Source: a virus
Strand: one strand, 5' to 3'
Virus record (IMG/VR): IMGVR_UViG_3300028361_000019
Coordinates: 37,530 to 101,529 of that record
Length of the DNA stretch: 64,000 bases
Shown: positions 44,377 through 63,465 of the stretch, in pieces
Numbering within the stretch: the stretch's first letter is position 1
How the letters are laid out: every line of letters begins with the position of its first letter
Position numbers and translations under genes: made by a program
Notes under the pieces: generated by a model
Told to the model about the DNA's origin: nothing
The model's database searches: none
What the model saw: only the letters and a program-made list of their open reading frames with translations

Positions 44377-46056
44377 ATGAGCGAATTATTGAACAGTGGT
44401 AAAGTTGGACTTACAGTCTTCAAAAACTTAGCTGAACAAAGAAAGGCGATTGTAACAAGTTGGTCTGATTCAGGACTTCTTGACGAAGGGTACGATGTAA
44501 ATGGTGCTCCAATCAGAATGAAAGGAATCAAAGCTGCAAACGTAGCACAACTTTTAGAAAATCAAGCTGCAGCAATGTTGAACGAGGTAACTCTTGATTC
44601 ATCTGCAGGTAGATTCGATACTGTTGCATTCCCAATCGTAAGAAGAGTATTCTCAAGATTACTTGCTAACGAAATTGTTTCTGTACAGCCTTTGGCATTA
44701 CCATCAGGATTATTATTTTACATGGATGCGAGAGTATCATATGCTGGACAAGATACAGCATTTAACGCAAACCCTCCAGGTATCACAAACGGAACAGGAC
44801 AACGTGACATCGTTGCGCCTCAAAACACAGCTAACGGACAAGCAGGTCCAGTTTTTGCTGACACTACAGCTTACGAGCGTTTTTACAACAACCAAGGTTT
44901 TGATATGTCTTTCGGGACAGGAGAGACAGTTATCGGTGGTGCTGCAGCTTCTGCAGCAACTGCATGGGTTGGTGGACTTAACAATATGGTTTTCAACTTA
45001 GGTGTTGGATTCGATACTTCTAAGCAACAATCTTCTGCAACACTTAGATTTACAGCAGCTACTGATGTATATCTTTCAGGTGCAGCAGGAAACACGTTAC
45101 TTATAGCAGCAGGTGGAACTATTCCATTCTACTCTTCAGTACAAACGTGGGCAGAAGACCAATACCAAGACGGTTTTGCAAGAGTAATTCTTGACCTTAG
45201 ACCAGCTGGTGTATATGGGAATGATTTTGATGCTAACCTTCTTAATGATGGTGCAGGTAACTTCGGTGCTGCGTACTCTCTTCAAGCTGGAGCGCTTTAC
45301 GAAATCTTTAACGATTTAGAGGCTAAGTCAGAAATGGCTGAACTTACAATCAGATTCTCATCTGTAACTGTAAACACTGTAACAAGAAAACTTAGAGCAC
45401 ACTGGACTCCAGAACTTGCTCAAGACCTTGAAGCATACCACTCAATTGATGCTGAGGCTGAGCTTACTGCTCTTCTTTCTGAGCACGTTGCAGCGGAAAT
45501 TGATAGAGAAATCATCATCGACCTTATTAATGGTGCGCCATTCAGAGCAAGATGGGATTACAACGGACTTTCATCTAATGCGAACTTCTTCGGAACTCAA
45601 AAAGATTGGAACCAAACTCTTATCACAAGAATTAACGAGCTTTCAGCTCAAATTCACAAAGCAACACTTAGAGGTGGAGCGAACTGGATTGTATGTTCTG
45701 CTGAGGCAGGAGCAATCTTTGATGACTTAGAATACTTCCACGTTGACGGTAGCGCAGCTCCAGAAAGCGAAAAGTATAACTTAGGAGTTGAGAAAATTGG
45801 TAACTTAGGTTCAAGATACGTAGTATACAAAGACCCTTATCTTCCAGCTAATATCGTACTTCTTGGACACAAAGGGAACACGTTCCTTGAGGCTGGGTAC
45901 ATCTACGCACCATACATCCCTCTTCAGTTGACACAAACTATCACTGACCCTAACGACTTCACACCTCGTAAAGGAATCATGACTCGTTATGCGAAGAAGA
46001 TGGTTAACAACAGATTCTACGGAGTTGTATACATTGATAACATTAACACTTACTAA
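44377..46056 (+). CDS. Major capsid protein, gp23-like
   Basis: The 559-residue protein (T4 gp23 is 521) has family landmarks: VAQLLENQAAAMLNE near residue 56-70, where T4 gp23 is cleaved after a similar segment, then AFPIVRRVFSRLLANEIVSVQPLALPSGLLFYMDARV. The C-terminal half shows IVCSAEAGAIFDDLEYF, a GNTFLEAGYIYAPYIPL strand and MTRYAKKMVNNRFYGVVYI. It forms the T4-type capsomers after N-terminal removal. Upstream are protease and scaffold genes. A terminator follows. Confidence 0.93.
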   Translation: MSELLNSGKVGLTVFKNLAEQRKAIVTSWSDSGLLDEGYDVNGAPIRMKGIKAANVAQLLENQAAAMLNEVTLDSSAGRFDTVAFPIVRRVFSRLLANEIVSVQPLALPSGLLFYMDARVSYAGQDTAFNANPPGITNGTGQRDIVAPQNTANGQAGPVFADTTAYERFYNNQGFDMSFGTGETVIGGAAASAATAWVGGLNNMVFNLGVGFDTSKQQSSATLRFTAATDVYLSGAAGNTLLIAAGGTIPFYSSVQTWAEDQYQDGFARVILDLRPAGVYGNDFDANLLNDGAGNFGAAYSLQAGALYEIFNDLEAKSEMAELTIRFSSVTVNTVTRKLRAHWTPELAQDLEAYHSIDAEAELTALLSEHVAAEIDREIIIDLINGAPFRARWDYNGLSSNANFFGTQKDWNQTLITRINELSAQIHKATLRGGANWIVCSAEAGAIFDDLEYFHVDGSAAPESEKYNLGVEKIGNLGSRYVVYKDPYLPANIVLLGHKGNTFLEAGYIYAPYIPLQLTQTITDPNDFTPRKGIMTRYAKKMVNNRFYGVVYIDNINTY

Positions 46057-48864: not shown

Positions 48865-50067
48865 ATGAGTTTTTGCGCAGAAGGATGTCTGGAATGTATG
48901 ACAGTAACAGAAAAGAACCAAATTTTCAGAAGAATTAGGAGAAAAATTGGTGCGCCTGTTATGGGAGTAGAACTTCTTGACGAACAAATCGAAGAGTGTA
49001 TTTGTGAAGCAATCGAAGAGTATTCTACATACATAAACGATTGGGTTCTTAGGAATCGTCTTGGAGAGATGCTTGGTCTTCCTTCTGAGGTTGATTTCAC
49101 GCTTAAATACGTTTCTAATTCTTTATATTTTGAAAGGTCTTTTGCTCAAGATATTGGTGAACAAATTGGTCTTGGAGCAAATGGAACCAGAGAAGTAAAA
49201 ACTACTTCTATACCATTAACTGCTGGTACTCAGGACTATTCTGTGCCTGCAGGAAGAGAAGTTCTTGATATTTTATGGTTTACTCCATCTTTTATCAACC
49301 TTTATGGACTTGACCCTTTTTCAAACAACAACATTGCTTTTTCTGAGTTTGGAGCTTCATTTGCAGGTCACTCTCTTTATTCTGTTATGCCTGTGTTTGA
49401 CACAATTATGAACGCACAAGCTGCAGAACTTAGAAATAGAGTTAGAGGTTCAGAGTATCACTACATACTTAGACCTGGACCAGATGGTACAAAAACTCTT
49501 AAATTATTTCCAGTTCCAAGAAGCGGAAGTGTGGCTGGCGGAAACAACAACATAGGAATTGGTGCTGGAGCTGGGACTCCTGGTACTGTGTTTTATACAT
49601 ATAGAGATAGAGCTGGTGCTTATGGTAACCCTGAATTTAGTGGATTCACTGCTAATCCAGACCCAAATTTTACAGGAAATACTGATAGTCAAGGAAATCC
49701 TCTTCCAGGAAATGGCCTTGTTTCAGGGCCTGGGGATGCTCAACTTAACTACATTAGCTGGTGTCAAATGAACTCTGTTGCACAAACATGGGTTAAAAAA
49801 TATGCTCAAGCTCTTGCAAAAGAATTGCTTGGTGTCGGTATTAGAGGAAAATTTAATGGACAACTTCCAATTCCTGGAGCTGAACTTACATTAAATAAAG
49901 ATGACCTTATTTCAACTGGTAGAGAAGACCAGCAAAGATTACTTGACAAGCTTGAAAAAGACCTTGAGGAGCTTTCTTACGATAGAATAATGGAGAAAAG
50001 GATGGCTGTACAACAAGCTGTAAACACAACGTTGTCATTCATACCAATGAAAATATGGATTTACTAA
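48865..50067 (+). CDS. Neck protein, gp13-like
   Basis: The 400-residue protein starts FCAEGCLECMTVTEKNQIFRRIRRKIGAP, with an LLDEQIEECICEAIEEYSTYIND helix (residues ~37-60), a feature of T4-type neck proteins, then TTSIPLTAGTQDYSVPAGREVLDILWFTP. The C-terminal half includes AQTWVKKYAQALAKELLGVGIRGKF and GREDQQRLLDKLEKDLEEL. In T4, gp13 and gp14 close the filled head and join the tail. It is longer than T4 gp13 (309). The gp14-like gene begins immediately after its stop codon. Confidence 0.78.
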   Translation: MSFCAEGCLECMTVTEKNQIFRRIRRKIGAPVMGVELLDEQIEECICEAIEEYSTYINDWVLRNRLGEMLGLPSEVDFTLKYVSNSLYFERSFAQDIGEQIGLGANGTREVKTTSIPLTAGTQDYSVPAGREVLDILWFTPSFINLYGLDPFSNNNIAFSEFGASFAGHSLYSVMPVFDTIMNAQAAELRNRVRGSEYHYILRPGPDGTKTLKLFPVPRSGSVAGGNNNIGIGAGAGTPGTVFYTYRDRAGAYGNPEFSGFTANPDPNFTGNTDSQGNPLPGNGLVSGPGDAQLNYISWCQMNSVAQTWVKKYAQALAKELLGVGIRGKFNGQLPIPGAELTLNKDDLISTGREDQQRLLDKLEKDLEELSYDRIMEKRMAVQQAVNTTLSFIPMKIWIY

Positions 50068-50640
50068 ATGGCTGATTTAAACGAAATAGGAAAATTCCCA
50101 GACGGGATGAAGGATGATGAAACTCAACCAGATGGTATTGGGTTATTCTTTGGAGATAAAGAGCGTGCTTTCTTTAGTTCTGCTGGTAGAGAGATGACTG
50201 AACAGATTCTTCAAGAGTCTATGATGCTTTTTAGAATTGACCTTAAGAGAACCCAAGGTCATAGTCTTTATGGTGAAGCAAAAGCTTTTCAAAAAGTTTG
50301 GAAACCAGAAGTTAAGATTCTTGGTAGAATAAATGTAGAGGCTATAGCTCCAGAATACACTGCAGATGGTGGTATTGTAAAGAAAGGGTTTGGACAATTG
50401 ACTGCGCATGTTTATATGGAACACTTAGAAGAGTTGGGTCTTGTTTTTGCCAAAGAAAATCAAACTACTGTGTTTGACCTTAATGATGGTGATTTTATAG
50501 GATTTAAAGACCAGTTTTATAAAATCATAAACAATGGTCACTCTCAAATCTCAAATGAGCACTCTTGGGGTGGTGATAGAAGGTTTTTTATTACAATCAC
50601 TGCTATCGAAGTTGACGAAGACGTTTTTAAGGCAAGGTAA
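50068..50640 (+). CDS. Neck protein, gp14-like
   Basis: The 190-residue protein has EMTEQILQESMMLFRIDLKRTQGHSLYGEA near residue 47, then KVWKPEVKILGRINVEAI and DLNDGDFIGFKDQFYKI, a beta-rich pattern like the head-closure proteins of T4-type myoviruses. T4 gp14 is 256 residues. It immediately follows the gp13-like gene. It would sit at the portal neck after packaging. The assignment rests on order as well as pattern. Confidence 0.72.
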   Translation: MADLNEIGKFPDGMKDDETQPDGIGLFFGDKERAFFSSAGREMTEQILQESMMLFRIDLKRTQGHSLYGEAKAFQKVWKPEVKILGRINVEAIAPEYTADGGIVKKGFGQLTAHVYMEHLEELGLVFAKENQTTVFDLNDGDFIGFKDQFYKIINNGHSQISNEHSWGGDRRFFITITAIEVDEDVFKAR

Positions 50641-50734
50641 TTCAAGAATTTATTTTTCTCTTAAATTATACTATAATCTTAGATATATAAAAATTATTCT
50701 TACCAGATTTAGGGAAAAATCCAAAAAGATAACG

Positions 50735-50754
50735 CCCCCCCTATTATCCCCCCC
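50735..50754. repeat. Paired C7 tracts
   Basis: Seven C, TATTAT, seven C. These are exceptional in an AT-rich genome. On the minus strand the G7-N6-G7 arrangement could fold as a G-quadruplex. A third tract of five C is at 50946-50950. The tracts lie in a 414-base gap between the gp14-like and tail-terminator genes. Confidence 0.6.
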
Positions 50755-50776
50755 TCTTAGAAAAAGTATTTCTACT

Positions 50777-50965
50777 TTAATCAAAAAGGCCTGTGTGAGA
50801 GGATGCTAAGTTAATTGTTATACTTAGTCTTAAACCTGCAGTGACAGGACACCAAATTGCTTTGGCGGGTAATAGAGAGTTTGTTTTCCAAAAGTATGAT
50901 AAGTCTACCATGCCCAGTGTAAAATCTTTGTGATAGAAAGCAACGCCCCCAAAAATAAAACTCAT
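50777..50965 (-). CDS. Possible small antisense-strand gene
   Basis: From the ATG at 50965 the frame encodes 62 residues (SFIFGGVAFYHKDFTLGMVD, ending NLASSHTGLFD) opposite to the surrounding late genes. It follows a good host-type promoter at 50989-51021 with a leader of about 20 bases. A GTG at 50971 in frame is also possible. No family is recognised. The alternative is that the transcript is a non-coding RNA with the G tracts at its 3' side. Confidence 0.35.
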   Translation of the reverse strand: MSFIFGGVAFYHKDFTLGMVDLSYFWKTNSLLPAKAIWCPVTAGLRLSITINLASSHTGLFD

Positions 50966-50988
50966 AGTCACAAAGCAAAAGCCTTACG

Positions 50989-51021
50989 CAAAGATAAAGC
51001 ATAAAAAACTTCATTTCCAAA
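50989..51021 (-). promoter_or_regulatory. Bacteroidota-type promoter, antisense in the neck-tail gap
   Basis: On the minus strand TTTG, 21 bases, TATCTTTG followed by CG. The match is good and the direction is opposite to all neighbouring genes. Confidence 0.5.
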
Positions 51022-51032
51022 TTTCTTCAAAC

Positions 51033-51042
51033 TATTTATTAA
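51033..51042 (+). promoter_or_regulatory. Late-type promoter motif
   Basis: TATTTATTAA, 22 bases before the ATG at 51055. Confidence 0.6.
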
Positions 51043-51054
51043 AAACACCTACAG

Positions 51055-52139: not shown

Positions 52140-54821
52140 ATGGCAACAATATTTGTATCACCAGGTGTCTTCACAAGAGAACAAGATTTCACAATCTTTG
52201 CATCAAGAATAGGTATTACAAGATTGGGAGTTGTTGGTAAAACCTTAAAGGGACCAGCATTCGAACCAATTAAAATAAGAACTACTGATGACTATCTACT
52301 TAGATTTGGGTCAACTGACCCAGACTTCCCGCTACCATACGTGGCGAATTCATTCTTGGCACAATCAAATGAATTAACTGTAACCAGAGTACTTGGTAGT
52401 GATGGGTTTACTAACTCACCAGCATGGTTAATCATGGCTAACATTTCTGATTTTTATTCAGGAGAGACAGTTTATAGTGGACTTACATTTTCACAAAGCG
52501 GACAAGCTGCACCAGTAACTTATAACTTCTCAGGTATCACAGACCCTGTTATGGCGAACGGAACTGTTTCAGCAAACACTGTTGGAAATGATGTTGTAAT
52601 TAACTATAGTGGTTCTGTAACTTCAGATTTTGTAAACAACGCACTTTTAGCTGATGCAGGATTTGTAGCCTTAAATATTTCTGTTGATGATGATAATGTT
52701 TCTCTTTTTGGAGATGGAACATGGTCACTTGCTGTAGCTACTGCAGAGCCTAAAGGTTCTAAATCAGGTTCTACACTTGCAGTTCTTAGAAGTAAGAGAA
52801 ATCAAATTGATGATTCATGGTACTTCAACGAAGAAAGTGATGTTACAATTGGAGCAATTACTTCTACATTAGGAAGTTTTGCACTTAGCGCAACAACTGG
52901 ACCTCTTACTGCTCAAACAAATAGTGGATTTACAGTTTCTCTTGATGAAACGAGAGAAGATTATATTACTAAGATTCTTGGTAGAAACCCAAAAATTATT
53001 GATGGGGCACCAAATCTTTATGTAGAAAGAATCTACCCTCACTTTGTGAGAGAGGCGAGTTCTCTTAATGATATTGCAAATATTAACTCAACTCTTGCTT
53101 ATACAGAAGAAGCGGCTTATACTGACTTCGCAAATGGATATACAAATGCTATTACTCCATGGATTGTATCGAGAGTAATCGGGGGAGACGTTAGAAACCT
53201 TTTCAAAATCCAAACTATTTCTGATGGTAACTCATCAAATATTGAGATTAAGATTTCTATCGCAAATATTGATATTTTAAACTATACTTTCGATATAATT
53301 GTAAGAAGATATGAAGACACAGATGCTTCAGCTTCTTCTACAGCGCTTGAAAGATGGTCAAACCTTTCTCTTAGAGAAGAAGATGCTAACTTTATTGCTA
53401 AGGTAATCGGAACAGCCGATGAGACTTACCCAAGAAAGTCAAGATTCATTACAATTGACCTTGCTGCTTCATTCCCAACTAATACTGTACCTGCAGGATT
53501 TAGAGGTTATGATTTAAGAGAGACTGGGATTTCAGGTTCTACTGCACCAAATGTTTATTACAAGACTGATTATCTTTCAGGTGATTCAGTGTTCAAAACA
53601 TACCTTGGTATTTCTGAGCTTGGATACACTAATTTTACAACTGACCAAGTTTCTACAAGAACTGCGATTAAGACTATCGAGTCTGATTTATTTTCATACG
53701 AAGGAGGAACTACTACAGATAAAACAGAGATTAAAGGTTTCCACCTTGAGAACACAGCAGATGCTACTAAATTTATTAGTGGTAACGAAAATTCTCTTAC
53801 AGGATATACAAATGCAGCTGGAACACTTGTTGATAGAAACAAGTTGAAATTTACACTTGTACCTGCTGGTGGATTTGATGGATGGGATAAGTATAGAACT
53901 TACCAAAATCTTTACGAAGAGTTTACTGATGCATTCCCTAATAATGTTAACGCATTTAAAGATGGTCTTGACGAAATGGCAAACCCAGAAGTTGTGGACA
54001 TCAATGTAATGGTTACGCCAGGTGTTGATTATAGCAATAATACAAACATTGTTAAGTATGCACTTGATATTGTAGAAGATAGAACGGATGCAATCTATGT
54101 AATGGATGCGCCAAGGCTTACAAGCGGCTCAATCAAAGGGACTCCAGAAGAAGTTGTTTCAAGACTTGAAGCAACTGGTATTGACAGCAACTATGCTGCT
54201 ACATACTGGCCATGGATTCAAATTGAAGACCCTAATTCAGGTAGATTCACTTACCAAGCGCCTACTATGATGGCTGTTCAAACATATGCGCTTACAGATA
54301 ATATTTCTGCGCCATGGTTTGCTCCTGCTGGACTTAACAGAGGACTTGCTGGACCACAAGTAATTAGAGCTGACGTTAGATTAAACAACAACGATAGAGA
54401 CACACTTTACCAAGGTAGAGTTAATCCAATCGCAACGTTTGTACAACAAGGTGTTGTTATTTGGGGACAAAAAACTCTTCAACAAAGACAATCTGCTCTT
54501 GATAGAATTAACATCAGAAGATTGTTACTTCAAGTTAGAAGATTAGTTGCAGCAGCGTCTCTTACATTATTGTTCGAACAAAACGACCAAACTCTTAGAG
54601 ACCAATTCTTAGCTAAGGTTGAGCCAATTCTTCTTCAGATTCAAAATCAAAGAGGGCTTACAGCTTTCAAAGTAGTTATGGATGACTCTAATAACACAGC
54701 AGATACAATCGACAGAAATACGTTGGTTGGTAAGATTCAACTTCAACCTACAAGAACGGCTGAATTCATTGACCTTACGTTTCAAGTCCTTCCCACGGGG
54801 GCGAGATTTGAAGATTTTTAA
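52140..54821 (+). CDS. Tail sheath protein, gp18-like
   Basis: The 893-residue protein starts IFVSPGVFTREQDFTIFASRIG, the conserved start of T4-type sheath proteins (SPGVxxxExDxT), followed by GVVGKTLKGPAFEPIKI and FLAQSNELTVTRVLG. The C-terminal region has the sheath core: YWPWIQIEDPNSGRFTYQAPTMMAVQTYALTDN, PWFAPAGLNRGL, VNPIATFVQQGVVIWGQKTLQQRQSALDRINIRRLLLQVRR. It is much longer than T4 gp18 (659), the extra length lying in the middle (residues ~100-560), so a large surface domain is likely. It contracts around the tube at infection. Confidence 0.93.
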   Translation: MATIFVSPGVFTREQDFTIFASRIGITRLGVVGKTLKGPAFEPIKIRTTDDYLLRFGSTDPDFPLPYVANSFLAQSNELTVTRVLGSDGFTNSPAWLIMANISDFYSGETVYSGLTFSQSGQAAPVTYNFSGITDPVMANGTVSANTVGNDVVINYSGSVTSDFVNNALLADAGFVALNISVDDDNVSLFGDGTWSLAVATAEPKGSKSGSTLAVLRSKRNQIDDSWYFNEESDVTIGAITSTLGSFALSATTGPLTAQTNSGFTVSLDETREDYITKILGRNPKIIDGAPNLYVERIYPHFVREASSLNDIANINSTLAYTEEAAYTDFANGYTNAITPWIVSRVIGGDVRNLFKIQTISDGNSSNIEIKISIANIDILNYTFDIIVRRYEDTDASASSTALERWSNLSLREEDANFIAKVIGTADETYPRKSRFITIDLAASFPTNTVPAGFRGYDLRETGISGSTAPNVYYKTDYLSGDSVFKTYLGISELGYTNFTTDQVSTRTAIKTIESDLFSYEGGTTTDKTEIKGFHLENTADATKFISGNENSLTGYTNAAGTLVDRNKLKFTLVPAGGFDGWDKYRTYQNLYEEFTDAFPNNVNAFKDGLDEMANPEVVDINVMVTPGVDYSNNTNIVKYALDIVEDRTDAIYVMDAPRLTSGSIKGTPEEVVSRLEATGIDSNYAATYWPWIQIEDPNSGRFTYQAPTMMAVQTYALTDNISAPWFAPAGLNRGLAGPQVIRADVRLNNNDRDTLYQGRVNPIATFVQQGVVIWGQKTLQQRQSALDRINIRRLLLQVRRLVAAASLTLLFEQNDQTLRDQFLAKVEPILLQIQNQRGLTAFKVVMDDSNNTADTIDRNTLVGKIQLQPTRTAEFIDLTFQVLPTGARFEDF

Positions 54822-54942: not shown

Positions 54943-56001
54943 ATGAAAGAAAAAGGAAACTGCGAGAACTGCGGAAATGAGAACCCTAAGCGAAGTATGA
55001 AGACCTGTTGTAGGAAGTGCGCAGATGAGTTAAAGAAAAAGAAGAGTCGAGAGACCAGAGAGTGTGTTAACTGTAGCCTAGGCTTCGAGGTCAGAAAGAA
55101 AGATAAGAAAAAGCTTTGTTCCGATGAGTGCAGAAAAGAATGGGCCTTGGTTCCAGAGAATTTGGAGTTAAGAATAAATAATTCCAAGCAAGCTGTTAGG
55201 GGTAGGTTTGGGGTTGACAACGTATTTCAATTAGAGAATATTAAACAGAAGTCTAAAGAGACTAAGAAAGAAAGATATGGTGATGAGAACTATCATAATT
55301 CTGACAAAAAAGTTGAAACTTTATACGATAGATATGGAGAGGGTTATTTTAAAAATTTATCAGATAGTTTAAAAGAAAAGTTTTTGAAAGAACATGGAGT
55401 AGAACATCCATTGCAGCTTGACGAATTCAAAGATAAGATGAAGCAAACCAACCTCGACAAGTATGGAGTAGAGAATGTCTCTCAGGTCGAGGAGTTCAAG
55501 GAGAAGAGAAAGGAGACTATGATGGAGCTCTATGGAGTGGAGAATGCTTCTCAGAATGAAGATATTAAGCAAAAGAAGAAAGATACTTCGATGAAGAATT
55601 TTGGAGTGAGCCATCACTTGAAAGATTACGACATGCTCCAGAAACATTTTAAAGCTCAATTAAAGGTCAAGAAGTATAAGGATACCAAGCTGTACTACCA
55701 AGGTTCATATGAACTTCATTTCTTGGAATTGATGGATGATAAAGGTTTGCTTAGTCAGGTAAGCAACGGCAGGAGTTATGACTACGAGTTCATGGACGAG
55801 AATCATGTGTATCATACAGATTTTGTATATGATAGTAAGGACATTGAAATTAAGTCAGGTTGGACGTACAACAAGAATGGAGAAGATAAATTGCTCCAGG
55901 AGATAAACGAGACCAAGTGGCAATCTGTGAGAGATGTGGGTGAGGAGATTGTTGTCTTGATTTCTAAAATTAGAATAAGTGAATTCGTGGACTATTTATA
56001 A
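54943..56001 (+). CDS. Homing-type endonuclease with YGVxN repeats
   Basis: The 352-residue protein begins with two zinc-binding segments (CENCGNENPKRSMKTCCRKC; CVNCSLGFEV...LCSDECRKEW). Residues ~80-225 carry five to six repeats of the form KERYGxENxxQxxEFKxK (for example YGVENVSQVEEFKEKRKETM), a DNA-binding array common in phage homing nucleases. The last 120 residues contain YDYEFMDENHVYHTDFVYDSKDIEIKSG, with D and ExK spacing of PD-(D/E)XK nucleases. It is related in the repeat region to the 566-residue protein at 61765. It lies right after the sheath terminator. Confidence 0.75.
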   Translation: MKEKGNCENCGNENPKRSMKTCCRKCADELKKKKSRETRECVNCSLGFEVRKKDKKKLCSDECRKEWALVPENLELRINNSKQAVRGRFGVDNVFQLENIKQKSKETKKERYGDENYHNSDKKVETLYDRYGEGYFKNLSDSLKEKFLKEHGVEHPLQLDEFKDKMKQTNLDKYGVENVSQVEEFKEKRKETMMELYGVENASQNEDIKQKKKDTSMKNFGVSHHLKDYDMLQKHFKAQLKVKKYKDTKLYYQGSYELHFLELMDDKGLLSQVSNGRSYDYEFMDENHVYHTDFVYDSKDIEIKSGWTYNKNGEDKLLQEINETKWQSVRDVGEEIVVLISKIRISEFVDYL

Positions 56002-58951: not shown

Positions 58952-59740
58952 ATGAAATCAGGAATTTACAAAATAACAAACACCATTAACAAAAAGGTCT
59001 ACGTTGGACAGTCAGAAAATTTAAACACAAGATATAGTAGGCATTTATATAGAATCAAAAGGAGTGAACATCACAACGAACACCTTCAGAGGTCTTTTGA
59101 TAAATATGGTGAGGATAATTTTATTTATGAGATTTTAGAAGAGACAGAAGATTTGTCTCTCATGGATTTAAGAGAGAAATTTTGGATTGACTATTATGGA
59201 GGAATTAATAGCGATGATACATATAATCTAAAAGACCCACTTCTCAATGAGCACAATGATTATGTTAAAAGCAAGTTAAGTAAAATTAATACTGGAGAAA
59301 ATAATCCTAACTATGGAAATAAGTGGTCAGATAAACAGAGAAAGAAAATGTCTGAGTCAAGAAAAGGAAAAAATTGGGAAGAATTATATGGGAAGAAGAA
59401 ATCTGATGAAATGAAAAAAGAGGCGGCAGAAAGAAAAAAGGGGAGCACACAGTCTGATGAGACAAAAGAGAAGATAAGGGAAGCTAATATTGGAGATAAG
59501 AATCCAGCATATGGAAAAGGTAGTAGGCAGAGAGGAAAGAAAAATCCAAATTTTGGTAAAGCATCAAGTCAAAGAAGAGGTTTATTGCAATTTAGTAAAG
59601 ATGGTATTTTAATTAAAGAATATGAATTTTTATCTCAAGTAAAAGAATGTGGGTTTCATATTGGAAATGTAGCTTCTGCAGCAAGGGGTGACTTAAAATC
59701 TTCTGGAGGATACATCTGGAAGTATAAAGATGAAAAATAA
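58952..59740 (+). CDS. GIY-YIG homing endonuclease
   Basis: The 262-residue protein begins SGIYKITNTINKKVYVGQSENLNTRYSRHL, the GIY-YIG core with the catalytic Arg (RYSRH), and has the catalytic Glu in LREKFWIDYYGGIN near residue 85. Residues ~110-210 carry NUMOD3 repeats (INTGENNPNYGNKWSDKQRKKMSE, NIGDKNPAYGKGS). The C-terminus (GLLQFSKDGILIKEYEFLSQVKECGF) is a NUMOD1-like DNA-binding helix region. Insertion is between a fibre gene terminator and a lipoprotein gene. Confidence 0.88.
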   Translation: MKSGIYKITNTINKKVYVGQSENLNTRYSRHLYRIKRSEHHNEHLQRSFDKYGEDNFIYEILEETEDLSLMDLREKFWIDYYGGINSDDTYNLKDPLLNEHNDYVKSKLSKINTGENNPNYGNKWSDKQRKKMSESRKGKNWEELYGKKKSDEMKKEAAERKKGSTQSDETKEKIREANIGDKNPAYGKGSRQRGKKNPNFGKASSQRRGLLQFSKDGILIKEYEFLSQVKECGFHIGNVASAARGDLKSSGGYIWKYKDEK

Positions 59741-61764: not shown

Positions 61765-63465
61765 ATGGAAAAAAAGTGTGAAATATGTAAAAATTTTTTT
61801 GAGACTGGAAAGCATAAAGAAAAAAAAACATGCGGAAAGGATTGTCTTAAAATTTTACGTGAAAATGGAAAAGAGGAAAGGATTAAAAAATCGAGAGAAG
61901 CTATTATTAAAAAATATGGAGTAGACCACCCTTCAAAAATACCTGGCTTTGGGGATAAAGTAAAAAAAACAAAGAAAGAAAAACATGGAGATGAAACATA
62001 TAATAATAGAAAAAAGGCAAAAGAGACTATAAAAAAAGAATTTGGAGTTGAGAACTCTATGCAAATAGAAGAGTCGAAATTAAAAACAAAAAAAACTAAA
62101 AAAGAAAAGTACGGAGACGAGCATTATAATAATAGAAAAAAGGCAAAAGAGACTATAAAAAAAGAATTTGGAGTTGAGCATCATCTTCAGTTAAAAGAAA
62201 TTTTAGACAAGCAAATAAAGACAAATATAGAAAAAAACGGAGTCTCATATAATGTGCTGAGCGATAAGAGTAAGGAAAATCTAATAAAAACTAATAATAT
62301 AAAATTTGGTTCAGATTATTATTTTTCTTCTTTAGATTATTTAAAAGAAACTAAGGAAGAAAAACTTGAAAGGTTAAGGATAATTTTAGAGGAAAGAAAA
62401 TTAGAATTTAAAGAGTGCGAATGTGATAGGGTAAGATATAAAAACACTGATGGAAAAATTAATTATTTGAAATATGATATAAAATGCACTTCCTGTGGAA
62501 ACAAATTTAGTTCAAGAGTAGTTAAGAGCGCTTTAGTTTGTAGAAAATGTTATCCAATTAAAAGTGGGTCAAAAATTCAAAGAGAGATGAGTGAGTTTAT
62601 TTTTGAAATAGAATCTAATACAACAGAATGCGAAAGAAGTGTTATAAAGCCTTATGAATTAGATTTTTATATAAAAGATAAGAAATTAGCAATTGAGTTA
62701 AATGGGAATTATTATCATTCCGAGATTTCTGGAAACAAAAATAAAAAATATCACCTATCAAAGTCTGAAAAGTCAGATAGATTAGGCATTAAGTTAATTC
62801 ATGTTTTCGAAGACGAATGGCTCCTTAAACAATCTATCGTTAAATCAAGAATTAGGAATTTACTTAATTTAACAGATAGTAAAATATATGCAAGACAATG
62901 CGAAATAAAAGAAGTTTCTTTTGAAGATAAGAAAGAGTTTTTGAATTCAAATCATATTCAAGGAAATTGTGTAGATAAAATTAGAGTTGGACTTTATTTT
63001 AGAAACGAGCTCGTTTCTTTAATAACTTTTGGAAAACCAAGATTAGCACTCGGAGCTAAAAATAAAACTCAAGAAGAAGGTTTTTTCGAATTAATTAGAT
63101 TTTGTTCAATATTAGACACTAATGTTGTTGGAGGGTTTGAAAGATTACTTAAATATTTTACAAACAACTATTCTCCAAAGAAAATATTAACTTATGCTGA
63201 TTGTAGATGGTCTGGAGTAAATCCAGAAAAAACAGTCTATAATAAAGTTGGATTTGAATTTATAAGAAAAACACCTCCATCATATTATTTTGTTAAGACA
63301 AATGATTATTTAAGTAGATTGCATAGATTTTCTTTAAATAAAATTAAATTGTTAGAAACTTATAAGGGAGATAAAAATAAAACTGGATTTGAATTAGCTA
63401 TTGAAAATGGATATGATAGAATTTGGGATTGTGGCACATTGGTGTTTGAGAAAATTGTGAAATAA
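61765..63465 (+). CDS. Homing-type endonuclease, Hef-like, with YGVxH repeats
   Basis: The 566-residue protein starts with a four-Cys finger (CEICKNFFETGKHKEKKTCG) and about four FGVENSMQIEESKLKTKK-type repeats (to residue ~165). A zinc ribbon follows (CTSCGNKFSSR...LVCRKC, near 245-265), and then a nuclease core: KPYELDFYIKDKKLAIELNGNYYHSE near 295-320 and KLIHVFEDEWLLKQSIVKSRI near 345. The last 200 residues (ARQCEIKEVSFEDKKEFLNSNHIQGN, LVSLITFGKPR, ILTYADCRWSG) match the C-terminal part of Hef-like phage endonucleases, from memory. It lies between the tail tube gene and a fibre gene. Confidence 0.8.
   Translation: MEKKCEICKNFFETGKHKEKKTCGKDCLKILRENGKEERIKKSREAIIKKYGVDHPSKIPGFGDKVKKTKKEKHGDETYNNRKKAKETIKKEFGVENSMQIEESKLKTKKTKKEKYGDEHYNNRKKAKETIKKEFGVEHHLQLKEILDKQIKTNIEKNGVSYNVLSDKSKENLIKTNNIKFGSDYYFSSLDYLKETKEEKLERLRIILEERKLEFKECECDRVRYKNTDGKINYLKYDIKCTSCGNKFSSRVVKSALVCRKCYPIKSGSKIQREMSEFIFEIESNTTECERSVIKPYELDFYIKDKKLAIELNGNYYHSEISGNKNKKYHLSKSEKSDRLGIKLIHVFEDEWLLKQSIVKSRIRNLLNLTDSKIYARQCEIKEVSFEDKKEFLNSNHIQGNCVDKIRVGLYFRNELVSLITFGKPRLALGAKNKTQEEGFFELIRFCSILDTNVVGGFERLLKYFTNNYSPKKILTYADCRWSGVNPEKTVYNKVGFEFIRKTPPSYYFVKTNDYLSRLHRFSLNKIKLLETYKGDKNKTGFELAIENGYDRIWDCGTLVFEKIVK

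What the first reader, a model, noticed from the sequence alone, without database searches (positions are those of the whole stretch)
50641..51054. Gap with C7 tracts, antisense host-type promoter and small frame
A 414-base gap inside an otherwise tight late operon holds two C7 tracts six bases apart, a C5 tract and a good host-type promoter pointing against the operon. The G-rich strand could form a quadruplex. It may encode an antisense RNA, a small protein, or be a site for recombination or replication.
Basis: seen in the sequence. Interest (0 to 1): 0.55.

Follow-up and report, generated by a model that had tools for sequence, protein, structure and literature searches.

The report
New structured RNA gene in phages
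The odd gap with C-runs in this phage's late operon appears to be the gene of a folded, non-protein-coding RNA that is read from the opposite strand and has been kept by many related large phages, yet matches no RNA family on record.

Summary
The 414-base gap (50641-51054) in a T4-like phage is strongly conserved, non-protein-coding and structured. The conserved C-tracts are G-tracts of an RNA read from the MINUS strand. Evidence: (1) 35 rows (window plus 34 loci) share the gap; a Bacteroidota-type promoter (TTTG-N20-TAnnTTTG, minus strand) is found in 32 of 35, against 3.3 expected and 0 on the plus strand. (2) The 5' hairpin H1 has changes on both sides in 8 of 8 pairs; in nine full-length relatives 31 of 65 pairs do (15.8 in shuffles, at most 8 when slid). 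(3) The RNA region is 85-86% identical where third codon positions are 56-58%. (4) It is single-copy, unmatched in Rfam, and its 62-residue frame breaks in relatives. The likely sigma-70-like promoter is chance-level; a quadruplex motif occurs in 5 of 29 rows.

The RNA carries one short motif (GGGGGCGUU) twice, and the copies change together. I infer twin contacts to one partner in trans. The boldest rival is a ColE1/T4-like R-loop primer at an origin. Function is unproven.

The parts
50641..51054 (.). conserved intergenic gap inside the late operon
   Evidence: aligned with relatives
50690..50985 (-). inferred structured ncRNA gene (about 290-340 nt; ends not mapped experimentally)
   Evidence: promoter; covariation; conservation
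51018..51021 (-). -33 box TTTG of the Bacteroidota-type promoter
50989..50996 (-). -7 box TATCTTTG (consensus TAnnTTTG)
   Evidence: consensus as stated in PMC7366714
50926..50975 (-). 5' hairpin H1: arms 50975-50968 and 50933-50926; the large loop holds motif copy 1
   Evidence: 8 of 8 pairs with changes on both sides over 22 rows
50941..50950 (-). motif copy 1, GGGGGCGTTG (reads as the C5 tract on the plus strand)
50905..50924 (-). conserved linker TTTTACACTGGGCATGGTAG
   Evidence: alignment A4; a similar ACACTGA stretch is seen in the remote L145/L148/L149
50867..50875 (-). 5' strand of helix P1 (CTATTACCC)
   Evidence: helix 5: 8 of 11 pairs with changes on both sides
50852..50865 (-). hairpin CCAAA/TTTGG inside P1
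   Evidence: helix 6: 5 of 6 pairs with changes on both sides
50735..50754 (-).
   Evidence: the two tract lengths are equal in 22 of 25 rows
50731..50739 (-). motif copy 2, GGGGGCGTT
50638..50697 (.). very A+T-rich stretch after the RNA: terminator of one or both strands, or an unwinding element
   Evidence: 4th least stable distinct 60-bp site of the window
51032..51039 (+). late-promoter-like CTATTTAT for the 51055 gene
   Evidence: same motif before many late genes; TATTTA within 60 nt of the start in 35 of 35 rows

Best explanation
The gap is a gene for a structured non-coding RNA of about 300 nt on the minus strand. An early, host-type (Bacteroidota sigma-A-like) promoter fires leftward from about 50985, and transcription stops in the A+T-rich stretch by 50640. 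The RNA folds into a 5' hairpin with a big loop, a conserved linker, and a P1-closed, multi-hairpin domain. It shows the same short motif (GGGGGCGUU) twice, once in the hairpin loop and once at the 3' side of P1. Shown by comparison: the structure, its conservation, the promoter and the co-change of the two motif copies. Inferred: it is transcribed early, it ends by 50640, and it works in trans by offering two equal contacts to one partner, most likely a phage or host RNA/DNA-binding protein of early infection. Confidence is about 0.9 that it is a minus-strand ncRNA gene and about 0.4 for the twin-contact trans mechanism; the figure in this field is for the whole statement.
For: Promoter in 32 of 35 rows, mean 3.3 (largest 8) in shuffled gaps, 0 of 35 on the plus strand. 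H1: 8 of 8 pairs with changes on both sides, covariation 0.810 against 0.314 in shuffles. Full RNA of nine close relatives: 31 of 65 pairs with changes on both sides, 15.8 +/- 2.4 in shuffles, 2-8 when slid. RNA 85-86% identical to L037/L038 where third codon positions are 56-58%. One copy per record. No frame conserved. Motif copies co-change on a tree of the downstream gene: 13 same-column, same-branch changes against 2.0 expected, 10 of them identical; own-pair mismatches 19 against 37.4 when swapped. L039/L004 lost most of the inner domain but keeps H1, both G-tracts and both motif copies.
Against: No transcript has been seen. The window sequence alone does not fold better than its shuffles (z -0.80; 0.21 for the whole gap). 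Strand from wobble counts is only moderate: in the helices with the best covariation G-U 15 against A-C 5, and H1 over 22 rows is neutral (5 against 6). The model finds neither the remote versions in G001, G002 and G008 nor anything in LR756508; for those three records the link rests on position, promoter and reading by eye. No partner is known; a second conserved target of the motif was not found. Some rows break the co-change (L054, L056).
Confidence: 0.55

Rival explanations
1. R-loop primer RNA at a replication origin, working like ColE1 RNA II or T4 oriF. The G-rich transcript re-anneals to its C-rich template; the H1 loop (copy 1) can pair with the template DNA of copy 2; the A+T-rich stretch just beyond opens, and the RNA primes leading-strand synthesis leftward.
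For: Host-type promoter followed by G-rich transcript and then by a very unstable 60-bp stretch (4th least stable site of the window). Identity of the two copies, kept through co-change, is what RNA-to-template pairing would need. The phage is T4-like (Gp23, tail sheath), and T4 oriF is promoter plus A+T-rich element with R-loop priming (PMC3016281, passages). For ColE1 the rG stretch and template dC stretch are essential (PMC4412123, passages).
Against: L145/L148/L149 keep two like copies (AAAACTTGT, ACAACTTGT) but have no G-tracts there. GC skew in G001 only follows gene strand. A+T-rich stretches also fit plain terminators, and in other loci the instability is less extreme (up to the 8th percentile). 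T4 oriF R-loops need no specific sequence, whereas this RNA conserves its fold.
Confidence: 0.22
2. Intramolecular switch: motif copies 1 and 2 compete for the 5' strand of P1, giving two exclusive folds during transcription.
For: Copy 2 lies in or next to P1, copy 1 resembles it, and in some rows (L061, L145) the P1 5' strand could pair with either copy.
Against: Tested: the H1 loop does not pair better with its own downstream region than with swapped ones (p 0.39, 19 rows), nor better than with shuffled regions (mean z -0.18).
Confidence: 0.08
3. Plain cis-antisense transcription: early minus-strand transcription holds down the late operon, and the fold only stabilises the RNA.
For: The promoter faces into the late genes 50068-50640 and 48865-50067 and lies beside the late-promoter-like motif of 51055.
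Against: The RNA fills the intergenic slot and probably ends before the genes; the loop and linker are conserved beyond what pairing needs.
Confidence: 0.1
4. Plus-strand leader (riboregulator) of the 51055 gene.
For: It lies directly upstream of that gene; paired helices read on both strands.
Against: A late-promoter-like TATTTA lies within 60 nt of the start codon, after the element, in 35 of 35 rows; fold better on the minus strand; minus-strand promoter conserved.
Confidence: 0.04
5. Small protein or micro-ORF on the minus strand.
For: A 62-residue frame from ATG exists in the window.
Against: Start codon lost, or stops and frame changes, in relatives.
Confidence: 0.02

Closest known systems
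ColE1 RNA II (primer RNA)
   Same: Non-coding transcript from a host-type promoter, G-rich stretch over a C-rich template, folded RNA, an upstream RNA segment that matches the downstream template.
   Different: In a T4-like phage, not a plasmid; shorter; no antisense RNA I seen; priming not shown; remote versions lack G-tracts.
T4 oriF/oriG R-loop origins
   Same: Promoter followed by an A+T-rich element in a T4-like genome.
   Different: Those use MotA-dependent middle promoters and the R-loops need no specific sequence (PMC3016281, passages); here a long conserved fold lies between promoter and A+T-rich stretch.
GOLLD, ROOL and other large phage ncRNAs
   Same: Phage-carried, structured, non-coding, role unknown.
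   Different: About 300 nt, no Rfam match at gathering score, no tRNA in the window.
phi29 pRNA (recalled, not tested)
   Same: Folded phage ncRNA.
   Different: No Rfam match; no test of packaging.

Membership tests
Known RNA families (Rfam 15) | score at or above the gathering cut-off of any of 4227 families | tested here: not met
   window, six loci: none; best sub-threshold hits in the gap rli43 13.5 of 100 bits, Alpha_RBS 11.8 of 38, both chance-like
ColE1 RNA II-type primer | promoter for a non-coding RNA upstream of the origin | tested here: inconclusive
   conserved promoter but no origin located; GC skew uninformative
ColE1 RNA II-type primer | rG stretch in RNA over dC stretch in template | tested here: inconclusive
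   present in the window and most rows, absent in L145/L148/L149
ColE1 RNA II-type primer | persistent RNA-DNA hybrid and priming of DNA synthesis | not testable with these tools
   needs infected cells or purified enzymes
T4 oriF-type origin | promoter plus downstream A+T-rich unwinding element | tested here: inconclusive
   60 bp at 50638-50697 is the 4th least stable site of 64 kb, but terminators look alike
GOLLD/ROOL | match to the family models | tested here: not met
   no Rfam match; that both families are in Rfam is recalled
tmRNA or tRNA | ARAGORN hit | tested here: not met
   none in the window or in eight loci
G-quadruplex element | four G3+ tracts with loops of 1-7 conserved among relatives | tested here: not met
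   5 of 29 rows

The most novel reading that the evidence does not exclude
T4-like jumbo phages start DNA replication with a dedicated, folded primer RNA: its 5' hairpin loop carries a copy of the template-side landing site about 210 nt downstream, so the RNA guides itself onto its own template, opens the adjacent A+T-rich stretch and primes synthesis. That would be a ColE1 RNA II-like origin in a T4-like virus, with a repeated guide motif that can drift freely as long as both copies drift together.
Probability: 0.18. Interest if true: 0.85.

Novelty: new variant of a known kind. Interest (0 to 1): 0.6.

Why it matters
It adds a conserved, covariation-supported RNA gene to a clade of large T4-like phages (contigs up to 388 kb), where 28 of 28 loci examined from the search carry the gap. 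The co-changing twin motif makes the partner question testable: changing one or both copies separates a twin protein contact from RNA-to-template pairing. If it primes replication, it bears on two questions the T4 origin review leaves open (PMC3016281, passage): the rules of R-loop formation at origins, and whether other origins use R-loops.

Tried and rejected
Small protein: the frame is not conserved. Sigma-70-like antisense promoter at 50923-50896: count not above shuffles. Quadruplex: not conserved. Known RNA: no Rfam, tRNA or tmRNA match. Intramolecular switch: tested and not supported. Conserved second target of the motif in trans: AACGCCCC was found at 27 places in 11 of 12 records, two of them per record at the element and extra single places in G000 (2), G005, G011 and G012; the plus-strand extra site of G000 was read in its surroundings and not followed further. 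Origin by GC skew in G001: skew follows gene strand (R 0.91), uninformative. A pattern for the H1 loop was badly chosen and found one known contig in viral contigs and 12 stretches in genome contigs; five of the 12 were read and look like chance matches, seven were not read. A protein-profile search of genome contigs found no relative. Four of the 14 loci of a first DNA pattern were chance matches by eye. Near relatives in phage records and plasmids: none convincing.

Rows left out: L042, L060, L063, L067 and L068 (near copies of L041, L058, L062, L066) were not counted apart; A4 leaves out L055, L057, L058, L059, L065, L066 and L069 as too divergent; A5 leaves out L039 because of its deletion; L141, L142, L146 and L147 were printed and showed no element by eye and are not in the 35 rows (L143 was not printed); L012-L017 (about 33% identity) have no such gap, nor has Microcystis phage Mel-JY01. 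In some searches the motif copies or segment borders were set by hand, and the branch test ignores branch length.

Full report
What the window is. The window is bases 37530-101529 of a 101,529-base virus record. It is T4-like: a Gp23 major capsid protein at 44377-46056 and a tail sheath at 52140-54821. Late genes carry a TATTTAT-type motif close to their starts, while some leftward genes (for example before 47816 and 47193) carry Bacteroidota-type promoter boxes. The Bacteroidota consensus (TAnnTTTG at -7, TTTG near -33) is as stated in PMC7366714 (passage read). A Bacteroidota host is inferred from this alone.

The observation. The gap, the two C7 tracts and the C5 tract are as described. The 9-mer AACGCCCCC occurs twice in the window, both times in the gap, where 0.01 are expected.

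Conservation. Searches of viral contigs with the downstream protein gave 16 loci, then 33 and 44, many of them the same contigs. In the close group the gap aligns over most of its length, at about 68-84%. Against L037 and L038 the RNA region is 85-86% identical, while third codon positions of the downstream gene are 56-58%; against three further relatives it is 69-74% with third positions 52-54%. L039/L004 has lost most of the inner domain but keeps both ends. No open frame is kept: the 62-residue frame loses its start codon or meets stops in relatives.

Strand. On the minus strand, TTTG-N(19-22)-TAnnTTTG (one mismatch allowed at -33) lies within 150 nt of the gene start in 32 of 35 rows. The three misses (L038, L044, L054) differ by one or a few bases. 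Shuffled gaps give 3.3 on average (largest 8), and the plus strand gives 0 of 35. In group A the consensus fold is -56.8 kcal/mol on the minus and -42.5 on the plus strand. Wobble counts lean the same way but moderately: in the six best helices G-U 15 against A-C 5; H1 over 22 rows is neutral (5 against 6).

Structure. H1, over 22 rows: 8 of 8 pairs with changes on both sides, 90.3% of cells paired against 65.1% in shuffles, covariation 0.810 against 0.314; slid versions reach 0.332 at most. Full RNA, nine rows: 31 of 65 pairs with changes on both sides (shuffles 15.8 +/- 2.4; slid 2-8), covariation 0.446 against 0.219. P1 has 8 of 11 such pairs, the small hairpin inside it 5 of 6, and the hairpin at alignment columns 179-203 5 of 7. 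The full structure was predicted from the same rows, which favours it over the slid controls. Folding the window sequence alone shows nothing unusual; the evidence is comparative.

Spread. A covariance model of H1 finds one copy per record, always in this gap, in 6 of 10 records, and in the window. It does not find the remote versions in G001, G002 and G008, or anything in LR756508. L122 and L124 match strongly; L145, L148 and L149 match weakly (E about 0.01). More distant relatives lack the gap (L012-L017; Mel-JY01), and L141, L142, L146 and L147 show no element by eye. There is no Rfam match at gathering score and only two sub-threshold hits outside the gap in seven further loci; there is no convincing near match in the phage or plasmid collections.

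The twin motif. Copy 1 lies in the H1 loop, copy 2 at the 3' side of P1. Their forms differ between clades but agree within an RNA: GGGGGCGTT in most, GAGGGCGTT in L040, GGGAGCTTG in L065/L069 against GGGGGCTTG in L066, GGGGTTG in L061/L062, AAAACTTGT/ACAACTTGT in L145. Swapping partners doubles the mismatches (19 to 37.4, 13 rows). On a tree of the downstream gene, 13 changes fall in the same column and branch in both copies against 2.0 expected, 10 of them identical (24 rows; branch lengths ignored). The two G-tracts around the P1 3' strand are equal in length in 22 of 25 rows.

How it may work. Co-change without pairing to the rest of the RNA (p 0.39 for own against swapped regions) points to a common partner outside the RNA, or to pairing of copy 1 RNA with the template DNA of copy 2. 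I prefer the first: a trans-acting RNA with two equal contacts, transcribed early. The second, an R-loop primer, fits the G-rich transcript, the order promoter - RNA - very A+T-rich stretch (4th least stable 60-bp site of the window) and T4 and ColE1 precedent (PMC3016281, PMC5043065 and PMC4412123, passages read). Against it stand the remote versions without G-tracts and the lack of any origin signal. That ColE1 RNA II uses an upstream G-rich loop is recalled; the passages read state only that the rG stretch and the template dC stretch are essential.

Novelty. Paper searches (listings only, except PMC7567579 and PMC7162821, of which passages were read) showed no description of this RNA. The library lacks most subscription papers, so this is no proof of absence. 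I file it as a new RNA family of a known kind (phage structured ncRNA), function open.

Noticed in passing
window 40974, 44377, 48559, 51055, 51818, 56576, 57105 (upstream of each start): A TATTTAT(A/T) motif shortly before the start codon of late genes looks like this clade's late promoter, different from the TATAAATA of T4 (the T4 form is recalled).
   Followed up: partly
window 54943-56001, 58952-59740, 61765-63465: Three homing-endonuclease-like genes (two with DUF7487, one GIY-YIG with NUMOD3) sit inside the late gene cluster.
   Followed up: no
L055, L057, L059, L136 upstream of the 51055-type gene: A divergent version of the RNA: hairpin loop AGACGGCTAAAAACACCTG or like it, separate G-tract, and in L057/L059 a long helix such as AGCTAAGTTC/GAACTTAGCT; model R1 did not match these four loci.
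   Followed up: partly
L145, L148, L149 upstream of the gene: Remote version without G-tracts at the motif that keeps the promoter, the TTTACACTGAC linker and two like motif copies (AAAACTTGT, ACAACTTGT).
   Followed up: partly
window 50735-50754 and relatives: The two G-tracts flanking the P1 3' strand have equal lengths in 22 of 25 rows (3/3 to 7/7), which pairing in P1 alone does not explain.
   Followed up: partly
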